DNA of 64,000 nucleotides. Origin: Maricaulis sp. Lineage in GTDB: Bacteria; Pseudomonadota; Alphaproteobacteria; Caulobacterales; Maricaulaceae. The notes beneath the pieces were generated by a model that had not been told where the DNA came from, did not search any database, and saw only the letters and a list, made by a program, of their open reading frames with translations. Positions 2,024-20,058 of this stretch are shown here, one piece after another. The translations under genes and the position numbers were made by a program. Each line of letters starts with the position of its first letter. Within the stretch, counting starts at the first letter, position 1. The stretch is taken from NCBI RefSeq assembly GCF_017642925.1, contig NZ_JAEPOL010000009.1:1-64000 (forward strand), in the 5' to 3' direction.

Positions 2024-2036
2024 TGAACGATGTTCA
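2024..2036. promoter_or_regulatory. Palindrome TGAACGATGTTCA (putative operator)
   Basis: This is a perfect TGAAC-N3-GTTCA inverted repeat 62 bases upstream of the minus-strand 139-residue protein and sterol-desaturase operon. The same motif occurs at 5156 and 20046 without mismatch, and at 5006 and 19313 with one mismatch. Its right half overlaps the distal copy of the 14-base direct repeat flanking the adjacent insertion. Confidence 0.6.
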
Positions 2037-2248
2037 CTAGCCGCCACCTTTCTTCCCCACATCGTGGGGAAGTGGGCCGCAGTGAAGCTGCGGGTCGAAG
2101 GGGCCCGGCGCACTGCGCCGGGAGGGCGGTCGAATCTGTCGCTGACCTTCTTCCGCCTGCGCTTCGCTCCGGCGGCCCCTCCACCACGCCTCCGGCGCGG
2201 TCCCCCTCCCCGCTGACGCGGGGAGGAAAGACCCTGTTCACTAGCCGC
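2031..2248. mobile_element. MITE-like hairpin element with 14-bp flanking direct repeats
   Basis: A 190-base body (2045-2234) is flanked by identical 14-mers TGTTCACTAGCCGC at 2031-2044 and 2235-2248, as expected of a target-site duplication. The body has imperfect terminal inverted repeats: CTTTCTTCCCCACATC at the left, and CTTTCCTCCCCGCGTC read inward from the right, matching at 13 of 16 positions. Inside are several perfect hairpins, for example CTTCCCCAC-ATC-GTGGGGAAG at 2052-2072. It encodes no transposase. The right copy contains the stop codon of the TonB receptor gene, so the insertion occurred exactly at the end of that gene without breaking it. Confidence 0.6.
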
Positions 2249-4940
2249 GGATGCGGAGCGTCACACCATAGGTCTGCGGATCACCGGGATAGGCGTTGTA
2301 GCTGGCGCCCAGATAACCCACCGACGGGAAGCCACCCTTGGTGTAATCCTCGTCGAAGATGTTGCGGCCCCAGAACTGCACCGCCCAGCTGTCGCTGTCC
2401 GACCCGATCGTGACCGAGGCGTTGTACAGCGTGAACGCATCCTGGGTCGCGAACGGACGCGGATCCTGCGACGTCGTGTGCTGGAACTCAGAGACGTAGG
2501 TCATCTCGCCGCGCCAGTCGATTTCCCAGCCATTGTTCAGCGGCGTGGTCAGGGTCGCGGTGAGCGAGCCGACCAGTTCCGAATTGCCACGATCGCGGCC
2601 CGTCAGATCGTTGAACAGCGCGGTGACACCGGCATCATTGGTCCGCTCATTGCCCGGTTCGCACAGGGCGAAGTCCGGATCGCCGGCATCCCACACGCCG
2701 GAACCGTCAACATAGGTGTCCGGGCACGGCGCGAACTCGTAATCGCCGTACTTGCTGTCGATCAGATAGGTGAAACCACCCGTGAAGAGCAGGTTGTCGA
2801 CCGGGGACCACTGGCCCTCGAATTCGATACCCGACACTTCGATCGAACCGGCGTTTTCAAGCGCAAAGCCATTGCCGACGAAGTTGTTCGTCTGGAAGTC
2901 CTCGATCTCCTGGTTGAAATAGGCGATCGCATAAACCATGCGGTTGTCGAACAGCGAGCCCTTGGCGCCGATCTCGAAGGAGCGCGAGATCTCTTCCTCG
3001 AACTCGAACACGCCGGTGAAGGCCGCATTCGTCGAGACGTTGAACCCGCCCGGCTTGAAGCCGGTGGCATAGCTACCATAGAGGTTCAGCGTGTCGGACA
3101 CGTCATAGGACAGGATGATATTGCCCGAGAAGTTCGTGTCGGTACGCGAGGTCGGGAAATCCGCCGCGCTGACCGGCTCGAAGTTCTGGAAAGCCGAGAA
3201 TCCCAGCAGCGGATTGAGCGCCGCCATGCGCGCCTGAGCTTCGCTCAGCGGCTGGGTCGGGTCGATCGGCACACCGGCCTGGGCCAACAGCGCCGGCACG
3301 AGATAGGCACACGCATCGCCGCCGATGATCGGGAAGAGCGTCGGATCGCATGTCGTCGGCGTGACCAGGCGCAGATCGCGCGCCAGATCGACGAAGGAGA
3401 AAGCCGACATCGGATCGGGCTGGTCGATGGTGGTCACCATCTCCTTGCTCTCGTCCGAGTAGCGGCCGCCCAGCGTCAGCGTGAAGCGATCGGTCAGGTG
3501 GAAATCAAGCTGGCCGAACACCGACCAGGCTTCCGTGTCATACTGGTAGTCTTCCAGGATGAGGCCGTGCGACGTCGCGATGAAGCCTTCAGCCGGCGTC
3601 GTCGGCAGAGCCGCATTGCCGGATGCGAGCGGGACAAAATTCCCCACACCGGCTGCCTGGTTCATGTTCAGGAAGAATTCCAGCAGATCGACACCGCCAG
3701 ACCCCGGCGGCAGACCGAAGGCCGAAATCAGCTGCTGGGCCGTCGGATCGGCGGCAGACGCCGCATCGAAGAAGTTCCGGGCATCAGCGCCGTACGGCGT
3801 GGAGTTCGAGAAGTGGAGGCGGTTGTTGTAGTAGAAAGCGCCGCCCATCCAGTCCATGAAGTTGTCGCCGGTCGAGGTGACCCGGAACTCCTGGGTGAAG
3901 CTGTCATAACGGTTCTCGATATGACGCAGGCTCACCAGGTCGAGATCCGAGAAGTCGGCGTCGAACAGCTGGTCTTCATCATAGCGGCGAACCGCCGTGA
4001 TCGAGGTGAAGGTGAAGGCTTCGAAGTCGTGATTGACCTCGGCCGAGATACCACTGGTCGACAGCTGGGTGTTCAGGTCGCCGTCGATCGCGATCCGGTC
4101 GCCGCCTTCCGGATCGGCCGGAACCGCCGTACCGCCGAGACCGACAAGCGCGGCCTGGTCGATCGGGTCGTAGAAGGCGAACGGGGCCGCACAGCAATTC
4201 TCGTCGATCCCGCCATAGTCGGCAATGATGCGGACCTCGGTATTGTCGCCCGGATTCCACAGCAGCTGGCCGCGGAAGGTGTGGCGCGAACGGTTATTGG
4301 CATCGCGACCGTCAACGACGTCGATATAGCCGTCGCTCTGGTGCATGGAGCCATCGAGGCGCAGCGCCATCGTGCTGTTGATCGGACCGGTGACGGAGGC
4401 GCGCGCAATGTGCGTGTTGTTGTTGCCGATCGTCAGCTCGCCCACATAGCCGAACTCGTATTCCGGCTGCTGGGTGATGATCGACACCACACCGGCCGGC
4501 GTGTTGCGGCCGAACAGGGTGGACTGCGGGCCGCGGATAACCTCGACACGTTCGATCGAGATCAGGTCGTTGATCGCCGAACCGGAACGCGGACGATAGA
4601 CGCCGTCGATGAAGACACCGACCGACGGTTCCAGACCGGGGTTGAAGCTCGACGTACCGATGCCGCGCAGGTTGAATTCGGTGTTGGTGGACGTGGCGAA
4701 CTCCGCCACGCGCAGGGACGGAACCAGGGTCTGCAGGTCAGCCGCGTCGCGGATCTGCGACTGCTCGATCTGCTCGCCGGTAACGGCCGCAACCGAGACG
4801 GGCGCTTCCTGCAGCGTCTGCTCGCGCTTTTGTGCCGTCACGGTGATGACGTCGACCTGCGCCAGTGCGCCGGACGCACCGATCAGGCCCGACAGAATGG
4901 CGGTCGTGCCCAGAACGGCCGCCTTGTTCAGCTTTTTCAT
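2241..4940 (-). CDS. TonB-dependent outer-membrane receptor
   Basis: This 899-residue outer-membrane transporter imports a substrate with energy from TonB-ExbB-ExbD. I chose the ATG at 4940 because AGGGGAG lies just upstream and the protein then opens with a clean signal peptide (MKKLNKAAVL...SGALA) followed at once by a TonB-box-like segment, VDVITVTAQKR. The plug domain shows GVFIDGVYRPR and the hallmark VEVIRGPQSTLFGRNTPAG; the rest is a beta-barrel rich in aromatic and Asn/Asp residues, with LYGSYATGFKPGGFN and a terminal strand YGVTLRIRG. It resembles the alphaproteobacterial receptors usually seen beside catabolic genes rather than siderophore clusters. It is divergent from a serine hydrolase, and two operator-like palindromes lie in the shared promoter region. 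Confidence 0.95.
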   Translation of the reverse strand: MKKLNKAAVLGTTAILSGLIGASGALAQVDVITVTAQKREQTLQEAPVSVAAVTGEQIEQSQIRDAADLQTLVPSLRVAEFATSTNTEFNLRGIGTSSFNPGLEPSVGVFIDGVYRPRSGSAINDLISIERVEVIRGPQSTLFGRNTPAGVVSIITQQPEYEFGYVGELTIGNNNTHIARASVTGPINSTMALRLDGSMHQSDGYIDVVDGRDANNRSRHTFRGQLLWNPGDNTEVRIIADYGGIDENCCAAPFAFYDPIDQAALVGLGGTAVPADPEGGDRIAIDGDLNTQLSTSGISAEVNHDFEAFTFTSITAVRRYDEDQLFDADFSDLDLVSLRHIENRYDSFTQEFRVTSTGDNFMDWMGGAFYYNNRLHFSNSTPYGADARNFFDAASAADPTAQQLISAFGLPPGSGGVDLLEFFLNMNQAAGVGNFVPLASGNAALPTTPAEGFIATSHGLILEDYQYDTEAWSVFGQLDFHLTDRFTLTLGGRYSDESKEMVTTIDQPDPMSAFSFVDLARDLRLVTPTTCDPTLFPIIGGDACAYLVPALLAQAGVPIDPTQPLSEAQARMAALNPLLGFSAFQNFEPVSAADFPTSRTDTNFSGNIILSYDVSDTLNLYGSYATGFKPGGFNVSTNAAFTGVFEFEEEISRSFEIGAKGSLFDNRMVYAIAYFNQEIEDFQTNNFVGNGFALENAGSIEVSGIEFEGQWSPVDNLLFTGGFTYLIDSKYGDYEFAPCPDTYVDGSGVWDAGDPDFALCEPGNERTNDAGVTALFNDLTGRDRGNSELVGSLTATLTTPLNNGWEIDWRGEMTYVSEFQHTTSQDPRPFATQDAFTLYNASVTIGSDSDSWAVQFWGRNIFDEDYTKGGFPSVGYLGASYNAYPGDPQTYGVTLRIRG

Positions 4941-5005
4941 GGAATTAACTCCCCTCTTCACGCGGTTTGTATGTGCCAACCGATCCGCGTTTCACATTTG
5001 TTATA

Positions 5006-5018
5006 TGAACACCGCTCA
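5006..5018. promoter_or_regulatory. Palindrome TGAACACCGCTCA (putative operator)
   Basis: This TGAAC-N3-GCTCA repeat has one mismatch from the TGAAC-N3-GTTCA consensus. It lies 66 bases upstream of the TonB receptor start in the divergent promoter region. Confidence 0.5.
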
Positions 5019-5155
5019 TGGCGGCTGTCAGCCGGTTTCTCGGATTTGCACAAAATTCTTGTCGGAATTGATGCACGTAATCCTCACCGGCGTTTTCAAA
5101 CACAGCCTTTCCGCGACCTCTTTTCAAGCCGCTCAACTGTGCTTAGGCTGCCGAG

Positions 5156-5168
5156 TGAACAGCGTTCA
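5156..5168. promoter_or_regulatory. Palindrome TGAACAGCGTTCA (putative operator)
   Basis: This is a perfect TGAAC-N3-GTTCA repeat that ends 24 bases before the serine hydrolase start codon. A regulator bound here would probably overlap that promoter or its transcription start. Confidence 0.6.
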
Positions 5169-5191
5169 TAAGGCTGTCACTGGGGAGACAA

Positions 5192-6466
5192 ATGAAAAAA
5201 CTTATCATTGGGTTGGTCGCTATAGTTGGCGTTTTGGCCCTCGCCGCCGCTGGCTGGTTTTTCCGGCCCTGGTCCGAATACTCGCCGGCCGAAATCCAGG
5301 CTGCGACGCAGCCGGAGCATCTTCCGGACACGTTTCGCCACATGGACGAGGTTTTCCCCTATCGCACGATAGAGCCGTCCGAATCGGCAACGCCGCTGCC
5401 GCGGGAAACCGATCAGGCGAATGTCGCCTACACCTTCAACGGGGCCGAACGGACGGTCGATGACTGGCTCGCCGACTCGCGCGCAACCGGTCTGATGGTG
5501 CTGCACAATGGCGCCGTGGTGCACGAGCAATACCTCATGGGTTCGACGCCGGAGAGCCGTCACACCTCCTGGTCGGTCGGCAAGAGCTATGTCGCCACGC
5601 TGATCGCGATGGCGATCCATCAGGGCCGTATCGCCAATCTCGACCAGACCGCCGAAATGTTCGCCCCCCAATATGGCGGCACGGATTATGGCCAGACCAC
5701 GCTGCGTCACCTGCTGATGATGTCGGCCGGTGTGGATTTCGAAGAGGATTACGGCGCCCCGGATTCCGATATCCGCCGCCTGTTCTTCGGCGCCAACATC
5801 TTCGGCCGCGATATCGACGCCATGGTCGCCGAAGTCGAGCGTGACCGTCCGGCCGGTGAAGACCTCCACTATGTCTCGGCCAACACCCAGGTGCTCTCGG
5901 CCGTCGCGCGCGGCGTCTGGAACGCCCCGCTGGCCGATATCGTCGAGGCGGAGATCTGGGGCCCGATCGGCATGACCGGCGAGGCCTACTGGAACCAGAA
6001 TGTGCCCGGCGAGCGCGGCATGGCGATCGGCTATTGCTGCCTCAACGCGACGCTCGAGGACTATGCGCGCTTCGGCCAGTTCTACCTGCAGGACGGGGTC
6101 TGGAACGGTGAGCGCCTTGTGCCCGAAGGCTGGGTGGAACAGGCCACGCGGCCGAACGCCGATTTCCAGGAACCCGGTCCGGACGCGGTCTATGCCCAAC
6201 GCGGCTATGGCCTGCACTTCTGGGTACCGGAGGGCTATGACGGCGAATACTTCATGGCCGGTGTCTACGGCCAGTATGTCTGGGTCGATGAGCGCCGCAA
6301 TATCGTGATCGCCCGCACCGCCGCCGATACGGAATGGGGCGGCCGCACAGCTGAATCGCTTGCCGCGATGCGGGCCCTTGCCGCCCACTACGGCGACCAG
6401 CCGGCCCTGCCGGAAGCACCGGAAGAAGAAGACGCTTCCGAGACCGGGGTGCCGGGCGATGAGTGA
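5192..6466 (+). CDS. Serine hydrolase, beta-lactamase (class C/esterase) family
   Basis: This 424-residue protein is anchored or exported by an N-terminal hydrophobic segment (about residues 3-21). The SxxK nucleophile motif is in TSWSVGKSY near residue 130, and a YVSANTQ segment near residue 230 fits the second Tyr-containing motif. The family includes beta-lactamases, D-peptidases and many esterases that cleave esters or amides outside the cytoplasm. Since the gene is divergent from a TonB receptor and overlaps an alcohol oxidoreductase gene by 8 bases, an esterase that releases an alcohol from an imported compound is a reasonable inference. The last 25 residues are an acidic tail. GGGGAGAC precedes the start. 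Confidence 0.88.
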   Translation: MKKLIIGLVAIVGVLALAAAGWFFRPWSEYSPAEIQAATQPEHLPDTFRHMDEVFPYRTIEPSESATPLPRETDQANVAYTFNGAERTVDDWLADSRATGLMVLHNGAVVHEQYLMGSTPESRHTSWSVGKSYVATLIAMAIHQGRIANLDQTAEMFAPQYGGTDYGQTTLRHLLMMSAGVDFEEDYGAPDSDIRRLFFGANIFGRDIDAMVAEVERDRPAGEDLHYVSANTQVLSAVARGVWNAPLADIVEAEIWGPIGMTGEAYWNQNVPGERGMAIGYCCLNATLEDYARFGQFYLQDGVWNGERLVPEGWVEQATRPNADFQEPGPDAVYAQRGYGLHFWVPEGYDGEYFMAGVYGQYVWVDERRNIVIARTAADTEWGGRTAESLAAMRALAAHYGDQPALPEAPEEEDASETGVPGDE

Positions 6467-8063
6467 TCTGGAATTCGACTATGTCGTCTGCGGCGCCGGT
6501 TCGGCCGGCTGCACGGTCGCCGAACGCCTGTCGCGAGATCCCGGTGTCAGCGTCCTCGTGCTCGAGGCCGGCGGCAGCGACAACAGCCCGATCATCCGCA
6601 CGCCGATGCTGCTGCAATACGCGGTGACCGGCGAGCAGTTCAACTGGGGCTACTGGACCGAGCCGCAGAAGCATCTCAACGACCGCAAACTCCTCTGGCC
6701 GCGCGGCAAGACGCTGGGCGGCTCCTCCTCGATCAACGCCATGCACTACATGCGCGGCGCCAAGGAGAATTACGACGAGTGGGAACAGGTCTATGGCGCC
6801 GAGGGCTGGGGCTGGAAGAACGCCCTGCCCGCCTTCAGGGAGGTGCAGCACCAGACCCGCGGCGAAAGCGAGCTGCATGGTACGGGCGGCCCGCTCTGGG
6901 TGTCGGACATTGCCCCGCTCAACCCGCTGACCGAGGATTTCCTCAAGGCTGCCGACCAGCTGCAATACAAGCGCAATGCCGACTTCAACGGCCCGGCGCA
7001 GGAGGGGTTCGGTCCCTATCAGGTCACCCAGAAGAACGGCAAGCGCTGTTCCGCCGCCGACGCCTTCCTGCGTCCGGCGCTGGAGCGCGAGAACTGCTCG
7101 GTGCGCACCGGCGCCATGGTGCGGCGGGTCGTGCTGGAAAACGGCCGCGCCACCGGCGTGGAAGTCGATCTGGACGGAGAGACCACTGTCATCACGGCGC
7201 GCAAGGAAGTGATCCTGTCCGGCGGCGCGATCAACTCGCCCCAGACCCTGCTCCTGTCCGGCATCGGTCCCGCCAACGAGCTGCGCGAGGCGGGCGTCTC
7301 GGTCGAGCACGACCTGCCCGGTGTCGGTAAGAATTTGCAGGACCATCTCGATGTGACGGCACAGGTCTGGACAAAGTCCGCGACCTCGATCGGCAATTCC
7401 CTGCGCTCCCTGCCCCAGCACATGTACATGGTGCTGCGCTGGGCGCTGCGCGGCGACGGACCATTCACGGTGAACCCGGTCCAGGGCGGGGCTTTCATCA
7501 AGTCGGCCTATGCCGGCGAGCTGCCGGACCTGCAACTGGTCTTCATCCCGGCCATCTCCAACCCGCACGGCATGGAGAAGACCAGCGGCCACGGCATCAC
7601 CCTGCATGTCTGCCAGCTCTATCCCAAGAGCCGCGGCGAGATCACGCTGAAATCGACCGATCCCCACGACCATCCGGCCATCCAGCCCAATTATCTGGAG
7701 GAGGAATGGGATCTCGATGTGATGACGGACGGGCTGGCCAAGGTCCGCGACATTCTCAACGCGCCGGCCTTCGACCATGACCGCAAGGCCGAGCGCTATC
7801 CTGGAGCCCATGTGGCCACGATGTCGGATTTGCGCGACGATGTGCGTGCGCGGGCCGAGACGCTCTACCACCCGACTTCCACCTGCGCGATGGGATCGGG
7901 CGATCTGGCCGTGACCGACAGCCGCTGCCGCGTGAAGGGCGTCGACGGTCTGCGCGTGGTGGATGCTTCGGTCATGCCCCGCCTTGTCGGCGGCAATACC
8001 AATGCGCCGACCATCATGATCGCAACCCGGGCCGCGGCGATGATCGCCGAAGACAATGCCTGA
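6459..8063 (+). CDS. GMC family FAD-dependent alcohol oxidoreductase
   Basis: This 534-residue flavoprotein is of the choline dehydrogenase/AlkJ type and oxidises an alcohol to an aldehyde. The FAD-binding GxGxxG is at residues 11-16 (CGAGSAGCTVAERL). GMC signature 1 is GKTLGGSSSINAMHYMRG and signature 2 is SGGAINSPQTLLLSGIG. The conserved C-terminal active-site His and Asn positions are in LYHPTSTCAMG and GGNTNAPT. I chose the ATG at 6459, overlapping the hydrolase stop, because the FAD motif follows at the usual distance; longer open sequence to the left is a shadow of the hydrolase gene. An aldehyde dehydrogenase follows after 32 bases, giving an alcohol to aldehyde to acid pair. There is no signal peptide. 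Confidence 0.93.
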   Translation: MSDLEFDYVVCGAGSAGCTVAERLSRDPGVSVLVLEAGGSDNSPIIRTPMLLQYAVTGEQFNWGYWTEPQKHLNDRKLLWPRGKTLGGSSSINAMHYMRGAKENYDEWEQVYGAEGWGWKNALPAFREVQHQTRGESELHGTGGPLWVSDIAPLNPLTEDFLKAADQLQYKRNADFNGPAQEGFGPYQVTQKNGKRCSAADAFLRPALERENCSVRTGAMVRRVVLENGRATGVEVDLDGETTVITARKEVILSGGAINSPQTLLLSGIGPANELREAGVSVEHDLPGVGKNLQDHLDVTAQVWTKSATSIGNSLRSLPQHMYMVLRWALRGDGPFTVNPVQGGAFIKSAYAGELPDLQLVFIPAISNPHGMEKTSGHGITLHVCQLYPKSRGEITLKSTDPHDHPAIQPNYLEEEWDLDVMTDGLAKVRDILNAPAFDHDRKAERYPGAHVATMSDLRDDVRARAETLYHPTSTCAMGSGDLAVTDSRCRVKGVDGLRVVDASVMPRLVGGNTNAPTIMIATRAAAMIAEDNA

Positions 8064-8095
8064 CAACACTGACCGACCGGCCGAAGGAGGCTGAC

Positions 8096-9517
8096 ATGAG
8101 CGAAGCCGAAGCCAAGCAGATCGAACGCATGAAAGCGATCCTCGAAGCTCAGAAGACGGCCTTTCGAGGGGAGCGGCACCGGCCGCTCGACAAGCGCAAG
8201 GCCGACCTCGAGCGGATCGCCAATCTGTGCCGCAACAATCCCGACGCGATCGCCGAGGCGATCTCGAAGGATTTCGGCAACCGGGCGCGCGAGGAAAGCG
8301 TGCTGGCCGAGATTGCCTTTGTCATCCAGGACGCCGAGCACACGAAAAAGCATCTCGCCAAATGGGCGAAGACCCGCAAGGTCGGCGTGCCGATGACGCT
8401 GTTGCCGGGCAAGGCGGAAATCCGCCGCGAGCCCAAGGGCGTCGCCGGCATCGTCTCACCCTGGAACTATCCCTTCCAGCTGGCCATGGCCCCGCTCGTG
8501 GCGGCACTGGGTGCGGGCTGCCGGGCGATGATCAAACCGTCCGAATACACGCCCGCCACGGCCGAGCTGATGAAACGCCTGCTGGCCGATGCTTTCGAGG
8601 AAGACCATGTCGCCGTGATCACCGGCGGCCCGGCAGTGGGCGAGGCTTTCACCAAGCTGAAATTCGACCATCTCTTCTACACCGGCTCGACCCAGGTCGG
8701 CCGTCTGGTCGCCAAGGCCGCCGCCGAGAACCTCGTTCCCGTGACGCTGGAACTGGGCGGCAAGTCGCCGGCCATCGTCACACCGGACTATCCGCAGGAC
8801 GCTGCTGCCAAGTCCATTGCCTGGGGCAAGCTGTTCAATGCCGGGCAGACCTGTGTGGCCCCGGACTATGTGCTGGCTCCGAAAGGATCGGAGCGCAACC
8901 TGGGCGAAGCGATCATCAATGTCGCCGCGCACCAGTTTCCCGATGCTTCGAGCGATGATGCCTACACGGCCATTGTCTCGGACCGGCACTATGATCGTCT
9001 CAACGCGATGATCGAGGAAGCCCGCAAGGGCGGGGCCGAAATCCTGCAACCGGAGCATGACGCCCAGGCCGCACAGGCTGCGCGCAAGATCCCGCCCACC
9101 GTGGTGATCAACCCGCCGGTCGATGCCGCGGTGATGACCGAGGAGATTTTCGGGCCCGTCCTGCCGATGGTCGGCTATAGCGAGCTCGATGCGGCGATCG
9201 ATTTTGTCGGCGACCGCGACCACCCGCTGGCGCTTTATGTCTACTCGACCGACAAGACGCTGGCCCAGCGCGTGCTCGACGAGACCATGTCGGGCGGTGC
9301 TGCCGTCAATATCAATCTCCTGCACCTGTCTGTGCCCGACCTGCCCTTCGGCGGCGTCGGCGCTTCGGGCCAGGGGGCCTATCATGGCGAAGCGGGCTTC
9401 CTCACCTTCACCCATGAACGCTCGGTCTTCTCGACCGGCAAATGGCACCCCTCCCGCCTCCTCGCCCCGCCCTACGGCAAGATGTTCGAGACTGTGGCCA
9501 AGCGGCAGATGAAGTAG
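8096..9517 (+). CDS. Aldehyde dehydrogenase, coniferyl-aldehyde-dehydrogenase-like
   Basis: This 473-residue NAD(P)-dependent aldehyde dehydrogenase turns aldehydes into acids. It shows the SPWNYPFQL cofactor-site motif, the catalytic Glu in TLELGGKSP and the catalytic Cys in FNAGQTCVAPD, with the usual spacing. Overall layout, including the C-terminal FLTFTHERSVF segment, resembles the coniferyl aldehyde dehydrogenase and class 3 fatty aldehyde dehydrogenase group, which tolerate bulky or long-chain aldehydes. A strong GAAGGAGG site precedes the ATG. It follows the GMC alcohol oxidoreductase and is probably its partner in one transcript. The true aldehyde is unknown. Confidence 0.92.
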   Translation: MSEAEAKQIERMKAILEAQKTAFRGERHRPLDKRKADLERIANLCRNNPDAIAEAISKDFGNRAREESVLAEIAFVIQDAEHTKKHLAKWAKTRKVGVPMTLLPGKAEIRREPKGVAGIVSPWNYPFQLAMAPLVAALGAGCRAMIKPSEYTPATAELMKRLLADAFEEDHVAVITGGPAVGEAFTKLKFDHLFYTGSTQVGRLVAKAAAENLVPVTLELGGKSPAIVTPDYPQDAAAKSIAWGKLFNAGQTCVAPDYVLAPKGSERNLGEAIINVAAHQFPDASSDDAYTAIVSDRHYDRLNAMIEEARKGGAEILQPEHDAQAAQAARKIPPTVVINPPVDAAVMTEEIFGPVLPMVGYSELDAAIDFVGDRDHPLALYVYSTDKTLAQRVLDETMSGGAAVNINLLHLSVPDLPFGGVGASGQGAYHGEAGFLTFTHERSVFSTGKWHPSRLLAPPYGKMFETVAKRQMK

Positions 9518-9529
9518 TGCAAGCCACGG

Positions 9530-9655
9530 CCTCCCTCTCCCCCGGGAGAGGGATCGAGGGAGAGGGGGAAGACACCGTCTTTGGTGATCGAAGCGCCGGC
9601 CCCGGGGTTCCCCCCTCATCCGCCCTTCGGGCACCTTCTCCCCTCGGGAGAATGG
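9530..9655. repeat. Intergenic hairpin repeat element
   Basis: Most of the 232-base gap after the aldehyde dehydrogenase is a GC-rich element. It opens with the perfect palindrome CCCTCTCCC-CC-GGGAGAGGG and closes with CATCCGCCCTTCGGGCACCTT and a CTCCC/GGGAG arm. Segments of this kind are common between alphaproteobacterial genes. It differs in sequence from the element at 2031-2248 but shares the design of inverted ends plus inner hairpins. No flanking direct repeat is evident. Confidence 0.5.
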
Positions 9656-9749
9656 GTTACCGCGCACCCCGTACGCACTTCGACACCGGACAGCCAACCC
9701 CTGGCCGGTGTAAATTGCCCGGGAATCACACGCAGCAGGATGCCCGCCC

Positions 9750-10508: not shown

Positions 10509-10566
10509 GCCGGCGCCAATACCCGGCACGCTCACAAAAGCGTTGTCCTGCCGCCCCCTGTCATCC

Positions 10567-10579
10567 AAGGTTGAACCTT
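10567..10579. promoter_or_regulatory. Palindrome AAGGTTGAACCTT
   Basis: This perfect 6-1-6 inverted repeat lies in the short gap upstream of the secreted beta-propeller gene, 20 bases before its start. It could be an operator or chance; no second copy was noticed. Confidence 0.25.
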
Positions 10580-10599
10580 CAGGGTCTGAGGTGCGCGCG

Positions 10600-12699: not shown

Positions 12700-12786
12700 C
12701 CGTTCGCGTCCGTTTTCCGCGAGCGGCGGGCTTTGCGGTTTCCTACATGTCCACCCGGAACTTGCGATTTCGAGGAGGATTGTCGC

Positions 12787-13566: not shown

Positions 13567-14636
13567 CCCGGCCCGCCATCCGGCATCGAGTCGGGGTCGA
13601 GGCCCATGGCGGTCATCCGGTCGCGCCAGCGCTGGCGGGCGAGGATCTGCATGTCCTCGACCGTGTCGGCCTCGTCGGTGATTTCCAGGCCCAGCAGCGT
13701 CTCGACCACGTCTTCCATGGTCACCAGGCCGCGCAGCGTGCCGAACTCGTCGACCACGACAGCCAGATGCCCTTTCGACCGGGTCAGCCGATCGAAGGCG
13801 GCGGAGGCGCTGATATCGTCGCGCAGGGTGATGATCTCGCGGCTGAACTCGGCAATGTTCCGGTCGAATTCGTCGCGCGCCTGCGCCAGGAGCAGGTCGG
13901 ACTTGAGGACATAGCCGCTGACATGATGCGCGGCGCCGTCGAACACAGGCAGCCGCGAGAACGGCGTCTGGGCGTGCGCCTCGAAGAAGGCGCGCACTGT
14001 CTCATTGCCATTGACCGAGACCATCACCGAGGCCGGCGTCATGATGTCCTCCACTTTGAGCCGGTGCAGGCGCATCAGGTTGGAGACAACCGCCAGCTCC
14101 TTGTCGTCGAGCACGCCTTCGCGGGCGCCGATCTCGGCCATGGCGCGCATCTCGTCGCGCGAGAAGGTGAAGGCGCTTTCACCGGACCGCGCGATCACGC
14201 CGGTCAGCTTTTCGGAGAACCAGACAAAGGGCGTCATCAGCCGGGTCAGCCAGAGCACCATCCGGCCGACGGACGGCGCCAGAGATTGCCAGTGCACAGC
14301 GCCCAGCGTCTTGGGGATGATCTCCGACAGGACGAGGATCAACAGCGTCAGGATCGCCGAGGTCAGGCCGACGAATTCATTACCGAACACCACGATCGCC
14401 TGGGCACCGACACCGGCGGCGCCGACCGTGTGGGCAACGGTATTCAGCGTCAGAATGGCGGCCAGCGGCCGGTCGAGATTGGCCTGCAGGGTCTGCAGGG
14501 CCTCGCTGGCGGGATGTTTCTTGCGCCGCAAAGCCTCGACATGCGCCGGCCGGACCGACAGCAGAACGGCCTCGGAGATCGAACACAGGAAGGACACGAC
14601 AAGCGCGAGGGCCAGATAGGCCAGGAGAAGCGTCAT
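13563..14636 (-). CDS. CNNM/CorC-type transporter with CBS pair (hemolysin family)
   Basis: This 357-residue inner-membrane protein consists of a DUF21/CNNM transmembrane domain (about residues 1-170) and a cytoplasmic CBS pair (about 195-330). Members export Mg2+ or other divalent cations and are historically named hemolysins. Hydrophobic helices include LLLAYLALALVVSFL and a stretch near 90-110. The segment VEDIMTPASVM opens the first CBS unit, and LAVVVDEFGTLRGLVTMEDVVETLLG is the conserved end of the second. There is no C-terminal CorC/HlyC FAD-like domain, so it is shorter than many relatives. Confidence 0.88.
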   Translation of the reverse strand: MTLLLAYLALALVVSFLCSISEAVLLSVRPAHVEALRRKKHPASEALQTLQANLDRPLAAILTLNTVAHTVGAAGVGAQAIVVFGNEFVGLTSAILTLLILVLSEIIPKTLGAVHWQSLAPSVGRMVLWLTRLMTPFVWFSEKLTGVIARSGESAFTFSRDEMRAMAEIGAREGVLDDKELAVVSNLMRLHRLKVEDIMTPASVMVSVNGNETVRAFFEAHAQTPFSRLPVFDGAAHHVSGYVLKSDLLLAQARDEFDRNIAEFSREIITLRDDISASAAFDRLTRSKGHLAVVVDEFGTLRGLVTMEDVVETLLGLEITDEADTVEDMQILARQRWRDRMTAMGLDPDSMPDGGPG

Positions 14637-14725
14637 TTATGGGCCGTCATGGGCAGCTGCAGCATGGATACGCGACCGGTCTAGCCTGTTTCGCGATCCA
14701 TGCCGAGCCTTACCGCAAGGCCGGC

Positions 14726-16450
14726 CTACCGCATCCGCAGCTCGCGCAGGGCGCGAACATTGCGCGCTCGTACGGCTTCACCATTCTCGTCCAGACGCCG
14801 GGCCAGCTTGGCCAGAATGTCCGGTGTCGGCAGGTCGTGCATCGACACCGCGCCGCTCATGAAAGCGCTGGTGCTGGCCTCGGCCGCGACCGCCCAGTGC
14901 GTAGCGCCACCAGCGTCAACCAGACCAGCCGCATCGATCTGCGGCCAGCCAGGTGTCTGCTCCGTCTCCAGCTCCACCCGCACCGTGTCGGGCCGGACGC
15001 CCTCCGGAAGCACAAAACGCACGACCGGCGCACCGTCATCCGAAGTCCGCCGCTGCGCGCCGCGCGCATTGAGAACAATGTCGCCGGGCGCGATCCGGAC
15101 CTGTTGCAACGCGTCGGGGATCTGGGTGAAGTGGATGTCGAGATAGCGTGCATCGGCCAGAGGCTCGAAGCCGAGTTCAAGCCATTCTTCGCCGGCATCC
15201 GCCGTTGCAGGTGCCCACGCATAGGCGGTTTCGCCGACCCCGCCATCGGGTGCGCCCAGGGCTTGGGATGCCGCGGCACTTGCGACCGGCATATCGCTCC
15301 AGTCCAGCGTGTCGAGATAAGCGCTGGCCGCCTCGACACCCTCGTCCTCAAGAACAGCGAATGCTTCCGCCAGCGGTGACGGTGGCACAGCCGCATCGCC
15401 GGGACGGTCGAGCATGCGCGTATAGATCAGCCCGCGCAGCAGGGCGAGCGAGCCGGAACGGCCGGCGCTGGAATTGTTCTGTACGGCTGCAGCGACCAGA
15501 TCGTCCGGGCGATTATCGATCATCAGCACGGAGAGATAGCCATCTGAAGCGCCAGATGCGACCCAGGCCATGGCGTCCTCGCCCAGACCGACCCGCATCC
15601 AGCCCATGGCATCATCGCCGTCGGACCCTTCCGCCGGGATCCCCGCCAGCATGATCTCCAGGCTGGCGGGCGAGATCAGGTCACCGGCTTCCAGCGCACG
15701 CCCGAAGCGCACCAGATCATGGGCCGTCGTGAAAATGCCGCTGGCACCGGGCAGGCCGCCGCGGAAGTCTGTCACGTCGACCGGGACGCGCGTCACAAGG
15801 TCCGGCATGTCGACCCCTGTCGCGATCAGTGCGGGGTTTTCGGGCACGCCATAGGTCGTTGCCTCGAGACCGGCCGGAACCACGATCCAGTTTTCCAGAA
15901 GCGCGGAATAGGTATGGCCCGTCGCCCGTTCGAGAACCAGTGCGAGCAGGGCGTAGCCGGTGTTGGAATAGGTGTAGCGCGCGCCGGGCGGGGTTTGCGG
16001 CCCCACCGCATTGAGCGCCTGCACCATGGCTTCCGGACCGTCCTCGCCGGCCCCGAGTGCCTCGGTATGATCGCGCATCAGTCCGCCCGTGTGTTCGAGC
16101 AGGTGGCGCAGCGTCACATCGCCATAGGACGCCGCATCCAGCTCCGGCACCCATTGCACAAGCGGGTCGTCCAGCGACAGGTCGCCGGTTTCAGCCGCGT
16201 GAAGGACCAGTGTTGCGGTGAAGGTCTTGGTGATCGAGGCGATGTGAAACCGGGTGTCCGGCGTGTTGGCCCTGCTTTCCTCCACATCGGCATAGCCGAA
16301 GGCCCGTTCGAAAACCGGCGCGCTGGCAGTCTCGACCCTGACCACACCTTCGAACTGGCCGCCCTCCGCCATCGCATCGAGAAAATCGTCAAGTGGGGTG
16401 GCGGTCGCGAGTGCTGCCCCCAGCAGCACGCCTGCAATATCGGTAATCAT
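14726..16450 (-). CDS. Exported serine hydrolase (beta-lactamase family) with C-terminal extension
   Basis: This 574-residue protein has a hydrophobic N-terminus (MITDIAGVLLGAALATATP) and a class C-type serine hydrolase domain at about residues 20-345. The nucleophile motif is HIASITKTF (SxxK), the second motif is YTYSNTGYAL (YSN), and WVASGASDGY could stand in for the third. About 200 residues follow that I cannot assign; they look beta-rich. The ATG at 16450 has GGAGGGAGGGATCC directly upstream. It lies 98 bases downstream of a D-aminoacylase-type gene on the same strand. A peptidase or amidase role beside a deacylase is possible, an esterase equally so. Confidence 0.85.
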   Translation of the reverse strand: MITDIAGVLLGAALATATPLDDFLDAMAEGGQFEGVVRVETASAPVFERAFGYADVEESRANTPDTRFHIASITKTFTATLVLHAAETGDLSLDDPLVQWVPELDAASYGDVTLRHLLEHTGGLMRDHTEALGAGEDGPEAMVQALNAVGPQTPPGARYTYSNTGYALLALVLERATGHTYSALLENWIVVPAGLEATTYGVPENPALIATGVDMPDLVTRVPVDVTDFRGGLPGASGIFTTAHDLVRFGRALEAGDLISPASLEIMLAGIPAEGSDGDDAMGWMRVGLGEDAMAWVASGASDGYLSVLMIDNRPDDLVAAAVQNNSSAGRSGSLALLRGLIYTRMLDRPGDAAVPPSPLAEAFAVLEDEGVEAASAYLDTLDWSDMPVASAAASQALGAPDGGVGETAYAWAPATADAGEEWLELGFEPLADARYLDIHFTQIPDALQQVRIAPGDIVLNARGAQRRTSDDGAPVVRFVLPEGVRPDTVRVELETEQTPGWPQIDAAGLVDAGGATHWAVAAEASTSAFMSGAVSMHDLPTPDILAKLARRLDENGEAVRARNVRALRELRMR

Positions 16451-16548
16451 GGATCCCTCCCTCCGGCATCGCGACCACGATGCGGAAGAAAAGCCCCCCG
16501 GATGCAAACCAGCGGATTACATTTCGCTCACATCCGAGGAGATCGATC

Positions 16549-18321
16549 CTACTCTGCCGCGATGGCGGTTTGTCCGGCGCGGTAGAGCGTGCCGGGACGC
16601 GCACCGGTGAGCCGGCCCTTCTCCATCACGATCTCGCCGGACACGATCGTCGCGTCATAACCGCGCGCGCCCTGCAACAGGCGCTGACCGCCGGCCGGCA
16701 GATCCTTCTCCATGTGCGGCGGTTCGGACTGGAGATTGTCGAGGTCGATTATGTTGATATCGGCCTTCAGTCCCGCGCGTAGATAGCCGCGATCGGTCAT
16801 GCCCAGATAGTCGGCCTGGGCACCGGTCAGCATGCGCACGACCTTCTCCAGGGTGAGACGCCGTCCGCGTGTGCGGTCGCGCGTCCAGTGGGTGAGCATG
16901 TAGGTCGGCATGGACGCGTCACACACCGTGCCGACATGGGCGCCGCCGTCGGACAGGCCGTAAAGCGCCTGGGGATGCTCCATCATCTCGAGCACATTGT
17001 CGTAGTTGAGCTCGGTGTAATTGTAGAGCGGCAGGTAGATCAGTTCCTGGCCGTCGCGCTCAAGCAGCGTGTCATAGACCATCTCCATCAGCGGCACGCC
17101 CTTTTCGCGGGCCCGCGCGGCGAGCGAGCGCTCCGGCGGCTGCTCGTAGTCCGGCGGATCGCCGAGCTGGAAGAATTTCTCGGCCACCATCGCGATATGC
17201 TCCATCAGGAGATCGGCGAGCGGTGGCACGGACGAGCCCGGCCCGGACAGCTTGTCGGTCTTTTCCGACAGGATCTGCGCCTTGAAGGCGGGCTCCTTCA
17301 TCTTCGCGACGCGCTGGTCCAGCGGCAGGTGCGCGATGGTCTTGTAGCTGGGATAGCCCATGAAGGGATGGAAGGTGCAGTTGAAGCCGAGGAAAACGCC
17401 GATCGCACGCGGTGCCACCTGCATGCGGGCATCCACGCCCTCACCCTTCAGCTTCTCGGTCAGCCCGATCAGCTTCTTCCACTGATCCGGCGCGAAATCG
17501 CGCTGCATGAGAGAGAAGGAAAACGGCCGGCCCGATGCCTTGGCATAGTCGGCGATGATATCCCACTCCTCGTCGAAATCCTGCTCGCCGCGTTCGAGAT
17601 TGAAATCGGACACCGCCTGCACGACACCGAAATCAAGCCCCTCGAAGGCCCGGGCAATGCCGGTCAGCTCGTCACGCGTGGACTCCGAGGACGGCGTCCA
17701 GTCGCCGTCGGCCGTCTTGTGCACGTCGGAGCGGCCCGTCGCGAAGCCGATCGCACCGGCTTCGAGCGCCTCGCGGGTAAGCCGGCGCATGGCGGCGATG
17801 TCGTCATCATTGGCCGGTTCGGAGAACACCGCGCGGTCGCCCATGACATAAACCCGCAGCGGATCGTGCGGTACCATGGCGGCAATATCGATGGTGCGCG
17901 GCATCTTCGCCAGCGCGTCCATGTATTCCGGGAAGCTCTCCCAGTCCCAGGTCAGCCCCTCGTAGAGCGCCGTGCCGGGGATATCCTCGACGCCTTCCAT
18001 CAGCTTGATCAGCTTGTCGTGATCGGCTTCGCGCACCGGGGCAAAGCCGACGCCGCAATTACCCATCACCGCGGTCGTCACGCCATGATCGATGGAGGGA
18101 CGCAGCTCCTCGTCCCAGCTGGCCTGGCCGTCATAATGGGTGTGGATATCGATAAAGCCCGGCGTGACGATCCGGCCGCTGGCATCCAGCGTCCGCTTCG
18201 CTTCGCCCAGATCGGTGCCGATGGCGGCGATGCGCCCGTCCTTGACGGCGATGTCGGCAACACGCCCCTCGCCCCCCGAGCCATCATGGATCATGCCGCC
18301 CGTGATCTTCAGATCATACAT
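16549..18321 (-). CDS. N-acyl-D-amino-acid deacylase type amidohydrolase
   Basis: This 590-residue metal-dependent hydrolase of the amidohydrolase superfamily is close to the D-aminoacylase/dihydroorotase-like group. The N-terminal beta-sandwich contains MYDLKITGGMIHDGSG, and the metal motif HxH is in GFIDIHTHYDGQ at about residues 60-70. The signature TTAVMGNCGVGFAPV follows, and the C-terminus has SDGGAHVGTVCD with the conserved catalytic Asp. Such enzymes remove acyl groups from N-acyl-D-amino acids or related amides; the exact substrate is unknown. GGGAGGT precedes the ATG. The BASS transporter gene ends 24 bases upstream on the same strand, so uptake and hydrolysis are probably co-expressed. 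Confidence 0.9.
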   Translation of the reverse strand: MYDLKITGGMIHDGSGGEGRVADIAVKDGRIAAIGTDLGEAKRTLDASGRIVTPGFIDIHTHYDGQASWDEELRPSIDHGVTTAVMGNCGVGFAPVREADHDKLIKLMEGVEDIPGTALYEGLTWDWESFPEYMDALAKMPRTIDIAAMVPHDPLRVYVMGDRAVFSEPANDDDIAAMRRLTREALEAGAIGFATGRSDVHKTADGDWTPSSESTRDELTGIARAFEGLDFGVVQAVSDFNLERGEQDFDEEWDIIADYAKASGRPFSFSLMQRDFAPDQWKKLIGLTEKLKGEGVDARMQVAPRAIGVFLGFNCTFHPFMGYPSYKTIAHLPLDQRVAKMKEPAFKAQILSEKTDKLSGPGSSVPPLADLLMEHIAMVAEKFFQLGDPPDYEQPPERSLAARAREKGVPLMEMVYDTLLERDGQELIYLPLYNYTELNYDNVLEMMEHPQALYGLSDGGAHVGTVCDASMPTYMLTHWTRDRTRGRRLTLEKVVRMLTGAQADYLGMTDRGYLRAGLKADINIIDLDNLQSEPPHMEKDLPAGGQRLLQGARGYDATIVSGEIVMEKGRLTGARPGTLYRAGQTAIAAE

Positions 18322-18345
18322 GTCAGACCTCCCGGTTTCGCCCTC

Positions 18346-19281
18346 TTACGGGGCCGTTTTCGTCTCCCGCGCGATTTTCAGCCAATCGAGGCCGCGGTAC
18401 AAGCCGATCAGACCGGTACCGGCAATGAGGTGCCAGATGCTCCACATGCCAGTGATCGCGGCCGCGCCGCCCAGCCCGTCAAACTGGCTGAGCAGGATGA
18501 TCAGGCCGAGACCGGAATTCTGGATCCCGACCTCGAAGGTCAGGGAGCGCCGGCTGGGCGCGTCCAGACGCAGCAACCGGCCGCTCAGCGCACCGAGACC
18601 GAAGGCCGACGCGTTGTGGATCAGGGCGATGGGAATGATGATTGCCCCGATGGCGAGGATGATCGTCCAGTTCTGCACCACGCCGACGACGATCAGAACG
18701 CCGATCCCGGCCAGCGATAGCGGCATCAGGACAGCGCGGATACGGGCGGCAATCCGAGGCCAGCGCGCCGCCACCAGCATGCCGGCCGCCAGCGGCACGG
18801 CCAGCAGGGTCACGGTCTGGGTCACGAAGGGCATGGGCGAGATCTCGAGCTGCTGCACCAGCTGTGCGGTGGGCCCGTAGACCGACGACCAGAACAGGAT
18901 CGACACCGGCGTCGCCAGGGCAGCCGAGACGCTGGAAATGGTCGTCAGCGAGACCGAATAGGCGGTGTTGCCCCGCGCGAAATGGGTCAGCAGGTTGGAG
19001 ACATTGCCGCCCGGACATGCCGCCACGACGAACATGCCCAGCGCGATACTGGCCGGCGGCGCCAGAATCAGCACGAGGCCGAGGGTGAGAAGCGGCAGGC
19101 CGAGGATCTGGACGATAACCCCGCCGATCACGCGTACAGGCTGCTGCCGTACGGCGCGGAAATCCTCGATGTTCAACGCCAGCGCGACGGTGAACATCAT
19201 CCCCATGAGGATAAAGGCCATCGCCAGCCGCGTTTGGTCATCAACTATGACCCGAAAAGAATCTATTTCTGCGCCGGTCAC
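18346..19281 (-). CDS. Bile acid:sodium symporter (BASS) family transporter
   Basis: This 311-residue inner-membrane protein has about nine to ten hydrophobic helices. The family signature CPGGNVSNLLTHFARGN (about residues 90-105) forms part of the sodium-site crossover region of BASS transporters. Members import bile acids, 2-oxo acids, pantoate or other organic anions with Na+. It is first in a minus-strand operon with the amidohydrolase and probably the second serine hydrolase, so it may import the organic acid those enzymes produce or consume. A near-perfect copy of the locus palindrome lies 32 bases upstream of its start. Confidence 0.9.
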   Translation of the reverse strand: MTGAEIDSFRVIVDDQTRLAMAFILMGMMFTVALALNIEDFRAVRQQPVRVIGGVIVQILGLPLLTLGLVLILAPPASIALGMFVVAACPGGNVSNLLTHFARGNTAYSVSLTTISSVSAALATPVSILFWSSVYGPTAQLVQQLEISPMPFVTQTVTLLAVPLAAGMLVAARWPRIAARIRAVLMPLSLAGIGVLIVVGVVQNWTIILAIGAIIIPIALIHNASAFGLGALSGRLLRLDAPSRRSLTFEVGIQNSGLGLIILLSQFDGLGGAAAITGMWSIWHLIAGTGLIGLYRGLDWLKIARETKTAP

Positions 19282-19312
19282 GATTTCCCCGTAAAAACAA
19301 TAATTTAGACTT

Positions 19313-19325
19313 TGAACAGTGTTTA
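19313..19325. promoter_or_regulatory. Palindrome TGAACAGTGTTTA (putative operator)
   Basis: This has one mismatch from TGAAC-N3-GTTCA. It sits in the divergent region between the BASS transporter operon and the HxlR regulator gene, close to the transporter start, where an autoregulated repressor would be expected to bind. Confidence 0.5.
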
Positions 19326-19556
19326 CCGAGCCAGCCTAGGCGAGTTGCGACCAATTGTCATTGGCCTGCAAAGGGTCGCAAAACTCCACCAAATCTGTAT
19401 TCTCCGCCGCCAAACACGGCGCGAATCCAGCCGGGAACGCAACCGGCGGCCGTGTTTTCGGGCGGGAATGAGTCTCCAGAACAGGAGTCGCCATTCCGAT
19501 TTTTGCGTTTTGGGAGGACCGCTTTGGGCAGCGGTCCGGAGTTTGGGGGACCGGAA

Positions 19557-20021
19557 ATGGGCCGGAAACGTTTCGACGAGATGTCGTGCGCAATTGCGCA
19601 AACCCTGAATCAGGTGGGCGACTGGTGGACACTGCTGATTGTCCGCGACGCGATGAAGGGTGCGCGACGCTTCAGCGATTTCCATGAAAGCACCGGCATC
19701 GCCAAGAACATCCTCACCGACCGGCTGAACAAGCTGGTCGAGAACGGCATCATGGTGCGCGAGGAAGTCGGCGTGCGCGGGCAGCGGCAGGAATACGTGC
19801 TGACCGAGCGCGGCGAGGCGCTTTTCCCGATCCTCATGGCGATGCAGCAGTGGGGCGACAAGTGGATCTACGGCGAAGCGGACGCCCCCGTCGAGATGTA
19901 CGATACGCGCACCGGCGATCCGCTGGCTCCGATCCAGGTTGCCAATCATCGCGGCGAGGAAGTCACCCATCGCGATGTCGCCACCCGTGACAAGTCCGGC
20001 AAGATGCGCGAAGCGGGATAA
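19557..20021 (+). CDS. HxlR family winged-helix transcriptional regulator
   Basis: This 154-residue DNA-binding protein has an HxlR winged helix at about residues 8-100. The family opening is seen as CAIAQTLNQVGDWWTLLIVRD, followed by RRFSDFHESTGIAKNILTDRL as the recognition helix region and GRQRQEYVLTERG-like wing residues. HxlR proteins bind as dimers to short palindromes and often respond to reactive aldehydes or oxidants through Cys residues; here the only obvious Cys is near residue 11. The ATG at 19557 has GGGGGA upstream; a longer frame exists but starts far before the domain. It is the only regulator in the first 33 kb, which makes it the best candidate to read the TGAAC-N3-GTTCA sites. 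Confidence 0.9.
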   Translation: MGRKRFDEMSCAIAQTLNQVGDWWTLLIVRDAMKGARRFSDFHESTGIAKNILTDRLNKLVENGIMVREEVGVRGQRQEYVLTERGEALFPILMAMQQWGDKWIYGEADAPVEMYDTRTGDPLAPIQVANHRGEEVTHRDVATRDKSGKMREAG

Positions 20022-20045
20022 TCCCCTCCGGTTTTTGAATCGACA

Positions 20046-20058
20046 TGAACATTGTTCA
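20046..20058. promoter_or_regulatory. Palindrome TGAACATTGTTCA (putative operator)
   Basis: This is a perfect TGAAC-N3-GTTCA repeat between the HxlR gene and the beta-helix lipoprotein gene, 51 bases before the latter's start. Confidence 0.6.

What the first reader, a model, noticed from the sequence alone, without database searches (positions are those of the whole stretch)
2024..20058. A private TGAAC-N3-GTTCA regulon around the TonB receptor, hydrolase, transporter and beta-helix/cytochrome genes
Perfect copies lie at 2024, 5156 and 20046, and one-mismatch copies at 5006 and 19313. All five are in intergenic DNA, upstream of the sterol-desaturase operon, the TonB receptor, the first serine hydrolase, the BASS operon and the beta-helix pair. 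A fixed 10-base pattern is expected about 0.06 times in 64 kb by chance, so three perfect copies in promoters are not random. The only regulator gene in this part is the HxlR protein at 19557, with one site in its own divergent promoter region. This would tie uncharacterised genes into a single response.
Basis: partly seen in the sequence, partly recalled or inferred. Interest (0 to 1): 0.75.

Follow-up and report, generated by a model that had tools for sequence, protein, structure and literature searches.

The report
TetR-controlled efflux and oxidation regulon
The repeated DNA word found in front of five genes is most likely the landing site of a drug-pump repressor encoded elsewhere in this marine bacterium's genome, which seems to switch uptake, oxidation and export genes together, so the regulon is real but the neighbouring regulator first suspected is probably not its master.

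Summary
In detail: three perfect TGAAC-N3-GTTCA copies (2024, 5156, 20046) and two one-mismatch copies (5006, 19313), all intergenic; about 0.024 perfect copies expected in 64 kb. The genome groups with Maricaulis (Caulobacterales). The fuller motif is GTGAAC-RNY-GTTCAC. In the 8 Maricaulis genomes examined all 54 perfect RNY sites are intergenic, 53 within 160 bp of a gene start.

The HxlR assignment is not supported: relatives without HxlR keep the motif before some of the same genes. Instead the motif tracks a TetR repressor that heads an RND efflux operon on another contig (C6:121069-121719): 70 of 80 orthologue loci have a 0-1-mismatch site within 200 bp of tetR, against 0 of 80 for the reversed control. 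Of 24 tetR genes tested in this genome only this one has such a site.

Likely mechanism: a TetR repressor, released by an unknown (perhaps lipophilic) ligand, derepresses pump, TolC, TonB receptor, AurF-like diiron protein, ferredoxin and GMC/aldehyde dehydrogenase genes. Binding and ligand are untested. A new member of a known kind.

The parts
2024..2036 (.). operator TGAACGATGTTCA, 65 bp upstream of the 138-aa/sterol-desaturase operon
   Evidence: perfect match; rank 2 of a matrix trained on TetR-linked sites of other genera; perfect site at the same gene in 7 of 8 Maricaulis genomes
5006..5018 (.). weaker operator TGAACACCGCTCA, 66 bp upstream of the TonB receptor
   Evidence: one mismatch; rank 5 by the matrix, score 6.1, no better than simulated background; TGAACACCGCTC kept in 7 of 8 aligned Maricaulis promoters
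5156..5168 (.). operator TGAACAGCGTTCA, 24 bp upstream of the serine hydrolase, 216 bp from the TonB receptor start
   Evidence: perfect; matrix rank 1, score 24.0; invariant in 8 of 8 Maricaulis promoters while the flanks vary
19313..19325 (.). operator-like TGAACAGTGTTTA between the BASS gene and hxlR
   Evidence: one mismatch, matrix rank 4, score 18.1; among five other Maricaulis HxlR loci only a degenerate possible counterpart, TGAACTTTGTTTA 24 bp before BASS in L125, score 1.4
20046..20058 (.). operator TGAACATTGTTCA, 52 bp upstream of the beta-helix/diheme cytochrome pair
   Evidence: perfect; matrix rank 3; same gene preceded by a perfect site in G001, G012 and Hyphobacterium G032; absent before the gene in G015 and G003 (L124, L126)
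598..1539 (-). sterol desaturase/fatty-acid hydroxylase-like protein (313 aa), second gene of the 2024 operon
1543..1959 (-). 138-aa protein, no Pfam family at E 0.001
2241..4940 (-). TonB-dependent receptor (899 aa)
   Evidence: NCBIfam TonB receptor models, below cut-offs
5192..6466 (+). beta-lactamase-fold serine hydrolase (424 aa)
   Evidence: PF00144, 118.7 bits
6459..8063 (+). GMC oxidoreductase, choline-dehydrogenase-like (534 aa)
   Evidence: NF002550, 609.8 bits, cut-off 605
8096..9517 (+). aldehyde dehydrogenase (473 aa)
   Evidence: NCBIfam aldehyde dehydrogenase models, below equivalog cut-offs
18346..19221 (-). bile acid:sodium symporter family transporter (BASS)
   Evidence: TIGR00841, 161.8 bits, below its cut-off
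19557..20021 (+).
   Evidence: PF01638, 80.8 bits; comparative tests
20110..21348 (+). parallel beta-helix lipoprotein-like protein
   Evidence: TIGR03805, 452.8 bits, cut-off 141.5
21356..22486 (+). SO2930-family diheme c-type cytochrome
   Evidence: TIGR03806, 397.7 bits, cut-off 313.3

Best explanation
The motif GTGAAC-RNY-GTTCAC is the operator of one TetR-family repressor. In this genome the repressor lies on another contig (G000:C6:121069-121719, 217 aa), first gene of a TetR - membrane-fusion protein - RND pump operon, with an operator between tetR and the pump genes. The window holds several trans targets: TonB receptor, hydrolase-GMC-aldehyde dehydrogenase operon, the 138-aa/sterol-desaturase operon, the beta-helix/cytochrome pair and possibly BASS. 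Other targets in this genome or its relatives are an AurF-like diiron protein, a [2Fe-2S] ferredoxin, TolC, a nitronate-monooxygenase-like enzyme, an alkyl sulfatase and FMO-type enzymes. Shown (comparatively): the motif, its conservation, promoter placement and linkage to this tetR. Inferred: that the protein binds it, that it represses (the sites sit close to start codons, as expected for a block), and that a lipophilic or amphiphilic ligand, perhaps a fatty-alcohol or fatty-acid-like compound, releases it so that uptake, oxidation and export rise together.
For: Regulator-operator linkage: 29 of 30 TetR loci examined, of 33 matches in 100 order genomes, and 70 of 80 loci from the genome collection (the two sets share species) carry a 0-1-mismatch site beside tetR; reversed control 0 of 80. 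In Hyphomonas/Henriciella loci with a site it is 5' of tetR, in Maricaulis between tetR and the pump. 68 of 69 loci where a pump gene was called downstream have the site. Specificity: of 24 tetR genes tested in this genome only the C6 one has a high-scoring site within 250 bp (15.6; next best 1.7). Cross-validation: the matrix from 28 distinct non-Maricaulis TetR-linked sites ranks the five reader sites 1-5 (24.0, 18.8, 18.3, 18.1, 6.1). Co-distribution: TetR-positive genomes 4.52 sites (n=33, control 0.12), TetR-negative 0.72 (n=67, control 0.48); within family f1, 13 vs 7 genomes, 6.62 vs 1.00. Genomes whose tetR has neither pump nor site beside it still have sites elsewhere: 7 Robiginitomaculum/Emcibacter-titled genomes 1-8 sites, controls 0-1. 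All 9 genome-wide TRAACRNYGTTYA sites lie in my called intergenic DNA (control 1). TetR_N domain and fold.
Against: No binding or expression data. Relatedness is not corrected for in the counts. G033 has three sites before an AurF-like gene, a fusion-protein gene and an aldehyde-dehydrogenase-like gene, but no TetR orthologue was found (best E 1.5e-12). L203 has the pump but no site. G043 (no TetR orthologue) has 4 sites, control 1. The own tetR-linked site has one mismatch (TTAAC). The beta-helix site is missing in two Maricaulis that have the gene, 19313 is at best weakly conserved, and 5006 scores no better than simulated background. The ligand class is inferred only from target genes; the best fold matches include proteins of unknown function and DarR, not only lipid sensors.
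Confidence: 0.87

Rival explanations
1. The local HxlR protein (19557) is the regulator.
For: It is the nearest regulator gene; one site lies in its divergent upstream region and one just downstream. HxlR, BASS and beta-helix genes stay together in 5 of 6 Maricaulis loci, BASS and HxlR in 6 of 6.
Against: Close orthologues only in Maricaulis in the sample, but four related genomes without any hit have 2-8 sites; no 0-1-mismatch site in the fetched flanks of L124 and L126, and only a degenerate one in L125; the TetR linkage is independent of it.
Confidence: 0.04
2. Another, unlinked regulator (a second TetR, an IclR-type protein or other) binds the motif everywhere, including the pump promoter; the tetR linkage reflects pump control only.
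For: G033 has sites without a found TetR orthologue. Similar palindromes exist for other families: a passage of PMC13273656 gives an IclR group-2 consensus TGRAACAN1-2TGTTYCA. A BioQ-like candidate, the TetR of a bio-like locus (cl77), has sites beside it in G015.
Against: TetR-negative genomes are near control level; tetR without a pump beside it still coincides with trans sites; none of the other 23 tetR genes tested in this genome has a strong site, the cl77 relative included, and cl77 in G018 has none.
Confidence: 0.08
3. Chance palindromes in AT-rich intergenic DNA.
For: With two mismatches allowed the excess in the window is small (23 vs 16.2); 19313 is at best weakly conserved and 20046 is missing in two relatives.
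Against: 54 of 54 genus sites examined are intergenic and stand beside recurring gene families; reversed-pattern controls 0-1 per Maricaulis genome; invariant 5156 footprint.
Confidence: 0.01

Closest known systems
BioQ (actinobacterial TetR repressor of biotin genes)
   Same: TetR family; predicted operator TGAAC-N3-GTTCA, the same core and spacing (passage of PMC3398298)
   Different: Different phylum and targets: biotin genes there, efflux/oxidation/uptake genes here. A TetR beside bioDFA-like genes in G015 (gene names by recall) is another protein; its 64.9% identical relative in this genome (L349) is only 25.7% identical to the C6 TetR and has no such site
TipR-AcrAB-NodT of Caulobacter crescentus
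   Same: TetR-type repressor of an RND pump, inverted-repeat operator, a few trans targets by ChIP-Seq (section 9 and passages of PMC10754441); same order by recall
   Different: Consensus WTGaGWMtGAWC, divergently encoded, four chromosomal sites; the present TetR has no match at E 1e-30 in the 20 f3 genomes sampled
PheR of Sphingobium (IclR family)
   Same: One repressor affecting TonB receptors and hydrocarbon catabolism together (passages of PMC13273656)
   Different: IclR family, different operator, phenanthrene operon
Acyl-CoA-sensing TetRs (FadR, KstR2, FasR, PvrA)
   Same: Same fold; among the listed Foldseek matches, TM by query length 0.59-0.71
   Different: 14-22% identity and not the top matches (those are 3on2 of unknown function and DarR); ligand of the present protein unknown; ligand classes recalled. 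By sequence the nearest solved chain is 3he0, E 7.8e-14

Membership tests
TetR-family repressor with local operator | TetR_N helix-turn-helix and TetR fold | tested here: met
   PF00440 50.2 bits; AlphaFold model pLDDT 88.5; most of the 50 listed PDB matches are named TetR-family
TetR-family repressor with local operator | palindromic operator beside its own gene or operon, conserved across genera | tested here: met
   29 of 30 and 70 of 80 loci
TetR-family repressor with local operator | distribution of sites follows the regulator | tested here: met
   33 TetR-positive vs 67 negative genomes, 4.52 vs 0.72 sites; exceptions G033 and G043 stated
TetR-family repressor with local operator | purified protein binds the operator and a ligand releases it | not testable with these tools
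   no bench data
   G031, G032, G052, G057 have sites but no HxlR hit at 1e-15
   of 5 other Maricaulis HxlR loci 4 have no 0-1-mismatch site there and L125 a degenerate one, 24 bp before BASS
BioQ regulon | TetR with TGAAC-N3-GTTCA operator | tested here: met
   same core
BioQ regulon | operators upstream of biotin genes | tested here: inconclusive
   no biotin gene among the assigned targets in 13 genomes; 20 of 89 sites unassigned; one site near a bio-like locus in G015
TipR-AcrAB-NodT | TipR orthologue and consensus WTGaGWMtGAWC | tested here: not met
   motif differs; TetR profile has no match at 1e-30 in 20 f3 genomes, taken (not shown) to be Caulobacteraceae; TipR itself was not aligned

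The most novel reading that the evidence does not exclude
One TetR repressor joins import (TonB receptor), oxygenation (AurF-like diiron protein with a dedicated ferredoxin; FMO/P450 in relatives), alcohol-to-acyl-CoA conversion (GMC oxidase, aldehyde dehydrogenase; acyl-CoA-ligase-like protein in Robiginitomaculum; alkyl sulfatase here) and RND-TolC export of the same unknown lipophilic compound class in marine Caulobacterales, making the AurF-like protein a new lipid or hydrocarbon oxygenase.
Probability: 0.3. Interest if true: 0.62.

Novelty: new member of a known kind. Interest (0 to 1): 0.45.

Why it matters
It gives a regulator, an operator and a testable target list to several uncharacterised gene families (AurF-like diiron protein, beta-helix/SO2930 cytochrome pair, 138-aa protein) in Maricaulis and its relatives, and suggests that uptake, oxidation and efflux of one compound class are switched together. 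It also shows that the nearest regulator gene can be the wrong one.

Tried and rejected
Rejected: HxlR as regulator. The TetR of a bio-like locus (cl77) as regulator: sites beside it in G015, none in G018 or at its relative in this genome. LexA-like box: the alphaproteobacterial spacing differs (recall), not pursued. 7471 as a site: coding, not among the best 25 matrix hits. The TGAACGCAGTTCA copy at C18:97234: non-RNY centre, low score 7.5. A sigma-70 promoter scan of the TonB/hydrolase region gave nothing. The four perfect RNY copies of G027 outside its TetR and TolC loci and the two of G019 outside its TetR locus are all inside called genes, so the motif alone is noisy in family f2. For G033 I looked for a similar recognition helix in its two best TetR loci with a crude filter that returned no protein at all, so it settles nothing. 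Paper searches for the AurF-like and beta-helix families showed no regulator in the listings. Target counts start from perfect RNY sites, so genes with degenerate sites are missed; one search left 20 of 89 sites unassigned to a named family, G052's pump site among them, and G098's pump site was not in that set (it is). Gene calls in other genera use a codon model from this window. In one search some targets are counted through a shared promoter (tsaE with ferredoxin, a DEAD-box gene with PF10118).
Full report
OBSERVATION. Perfect copies are at 2024, 5156 and 20046, one-mismatch copies at 5006 and 19313. A further one-mismatch copy at 7471 lies in coding sequence. By my codon-based gene calls the five are intergenic and 24-92 bp from a called start codon. 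From base composition 0.024 perfect copies are expected in the window and 1.4 in the genome; 3 and 7 are found, the reversed pattern giving 2 in the genome.

ORGANISM. The genome (3.61 Mb, 35 contigs; window = C9:1-64000) belongs with Maricaulis: the orthologue of its TetR in a record titled Maricaulis sp. SAT23 is 97% identical. Contig lengths of G018 and G003 equal those of records titled M. maris DSM 4734 and M. salignorans DSM 16077, and G032's that of Hyphobacterium indicum 2ED5.

MOTIF IN RELATIVES. With the centre restricted to R-N-Y, the own genome has 5 copies and the 18 same-genus genomes of that search 4-10 each, reversed control 0 (1 in G014). I fetched every such copy in 8 Maricaulis genomes (the own and G001, G003, G010, G012, G014, G015, G018; 54 sites): 54 of 54 are intergenic and 53 lie within 160 bp of a gene start. 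In five further f1 genomes (G032, G052, G057, G062, G098) 34 of the 35 sites fetched lie outside called genes. They recur before the same families. Genomes with a perfect site at the gene, of these 13: AurF-like diiron protein 12, serine hydrolase 9, TolC 9, 138-aa protein 8, TonB receptor 8, ferredoxin 8 (it shares its promoter with tsaE), RND fusion protein 6, nitronate-monooxygenase-like protein 5, beta-helix protein 4, PF10118 protein 4. Targets in other genera include FMO-type flavoproteins, a penicillin amidase, an esterase-like hydrolase and a glycosyltransferase.

CONSERVATION OF THE WINDOW SITES. In aligned TonB/hydrolase promoters of 8 Maricaulis genomes the 5156 site is invariant amid variable flanks, and TGAACACCGCTC of the 5006 site is kept in 7 of 8. 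20046 has a counterpart at the same gene in G001, G012 and Hyphobacterium G032, but the gene stands beside hxlR without a 0-1-mismatch site in G015 and G003. 19313 has, among five other Maricaulis HxlR loci, one possible counterpart: TGAACTTTGTTTA, 24 bp before BASS in G002, with a non-RNY centre and a score of 1.4.

FINDING THE REGULATOR. No TetR_N match was found on contig C9. In L038, L064 and L069, fetched for their sites, the site lies between a tetR gene and the fusion-protein gene of an RND pump operon. In this genome the same operon is on C6, with TTAACGCCGTTCA between tetR and the pump. A profile of this TetR matches 33 of 100 genomes drawn from the order at E 1e-30. Of the 30 loci returned, 29 have a 0-1-mismatch site 25-86 bp from the match; the exception, G057, has no pump gene beside tetR (L264) but keeps four sites elsewhere. 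In the named genome collection 70 of the 80 loci kept (96 relatives found) have the site within 200 bp, the reversed pattern 0 of 80. Where a pump gene was called downstream, 68 of 69 have it; where none was called, 2 of 11. Several of these pumpless loci are from Robiginitomaculum-titled records; their genomes still carry sites elsewhere (G113-G118: 2, 6, 5, 8, 6, 3; controls 0, 0, 0, 0, 0, 1; G119, titled Emcibacter: 1, control 0; G120: 7, control 0; G121, the genome of L203: 2, control 1). In G116, G120 and G114 (8 of 8, 7 of 7 and 4 of 6 sites fetched) the sites lie before AurF-like, nitronate-monooxygenase-like and fusion-protein genes by BLAST, and before genes that I name only by eye as GMC, aldehyde dehydrogenase, AMP-ligase and FMO. 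In that of 22 sites (G033's three included in the 22) fell inside an uncurated longest ORF.

CROSS-VALIDATION. A 17-bp matrix made from 28 distinct TetR-linked sites outside Maricaulis (55 before removing duplicates) was scanned over the window. In 100 simulated windows (first-order Markov) the mean maximum was 8.0, the largest 18.9, so 5006 alone is not significant and rests on its conservation. In this genome 24 tetR genes were examined within 250 bp: only the C6 one has a strong site (15.6, next 1.7); a 25th, weak TetR match on C22 was not examined. TRAACRNYGTTYA occurs nine times in the genome (control 1), all in called intergenic DNA: four in the window, and before the nitronate-monooxygenase-like gene, a TPR protein/LysR pair, the AurF-like gene, an alkyl sulfatase and the ferredoxin.

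CO-DISTRIBUTION. In the 100-genome sample TetR-positive genomes have 4.52 sites on average (n=33, control 0.12), TetR-negative 0.72 (n=67, control 0.48), Mann-Whitney P 2.4e-14; within family f1, 13 versus 7 genomes, 6.62 versus 1.00, P 2e-4. These P values ignore relatedness. A close HxlR orthologue exists only in the Maricaulis genomes of the sample. Four f1 genomes with the TetR but no HxlR hit have 2, 8, 8 and 4 sites.

EXCEPTIONS. G033 keeps three sites before an AurF-like gene, a fusion-protein gene and an aldehyde-dehydrogenase-like gene (the last named by eye), yet no TetR orthologue was found (best E 1.5e-12). L203 has the pump without a site. G043 has four sites without the TetR. In G027 and G019 (family f2) the perfect copies outside the TetR and TolC loci are coding and look like chance.

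MECHANISM. Shown: the operator, its conservation, its promoter placement and its linkage to this tetR. Inferred from the family: a dimer binds the palindrome and blocks transcription, and a ligand in the C-terminal domain releases it. In Hyphomonas and Henriciella loci with a site it precedes tetR (autoregulation likely); in Maricaulis it lies behind tetR, so the pump is controlled but tetR perhaps not. TetR-pump-TolC is common to both families; in f1 the regulon holds oxidative and uptake genes as well. Alkyl sulfatase, GMC oxidase, aldehyde dehydrogenase and, in Robiginitomaculum, the AMP-ligase-like protein would form a chain from alkyl sulfate or alcohol to acyl-CoA. Fatty-acyl-sensing TetRs are among the fold matches, but at 14-22% identity and below proteins of unknown function and DarR. 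This suggests, without proving, a lipophilic inducer.

LITERATURE. A search of the full-text library for six spellings of the motif found one paper, PMC3398298, whose passage gives TGAAC-N3-GTTCA as the predicted site of BioQ, an actinobacterial TetR. TipR of Caulobacter has a different consensus (section 9 of PMC10754441). Searches for Maricaulis/TetR/efflux, TetR regulons in Caulobacterales and Hyphomonas/Maricaulis/Henriciella/TetR/regulon showed no description of this regulon in the listings, which is all I saw of them; most subscription papers are not covered.

VERDICT. The regulon is real and conserved; its regulator is most likely the efflux-pump TetR on another contig, not HxlR. It is a new member of a well-known kind, of moderate interest because of the uncharacterised oxidation and uptake genes it ties together.

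Noticed in passing
window 2031-2046 and 2233-2249: The string GTTCACTAGCCGC, which overlaps the 2024 operator, recurs at the 3' end of the TonB receptor gene; between the copies lie GC-rich inverted repeats by eye, perhaps a small inserted repeat element.
   Followed up: no
window about 48000-58000: Lower-GC stretch (0.55-0.59 at its lowest) whose proteins look like a type I restriction-modification or defence island (by recall of sequence only).
   Followed up: no
L070:6001-6741 (G015): A TetR next to bioD/F/A-like genes has a perfect TGAACAATGTTCA and a one-mismatch copy upstream, reminiscent of BioQ; its 65% identical counterpart in this genome (L349) has none.
   Followed up: partly
G000:C4:195012-195800, C23:13514-14278, C31:15587-16372: Three open frames with two TetR_N domains each; likewise two frames with two HxlR domains (C1:195019-195747, C4:206067-206804).
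   Followed up: no
G033 (L324, L325, L326): Three perfect sites before AurF-like, pump fusion-protein and aldehyde-dehydrogenase-like genes although no TetR orthologue was found.
   Followed up: partly
L010:4659-5747 (C22): AurF-like diiron protein (PF11583, 78.5 bits) is the most widely shared target, 12 of 13 genomes; its substrate is unknown.
   Followed up: partly
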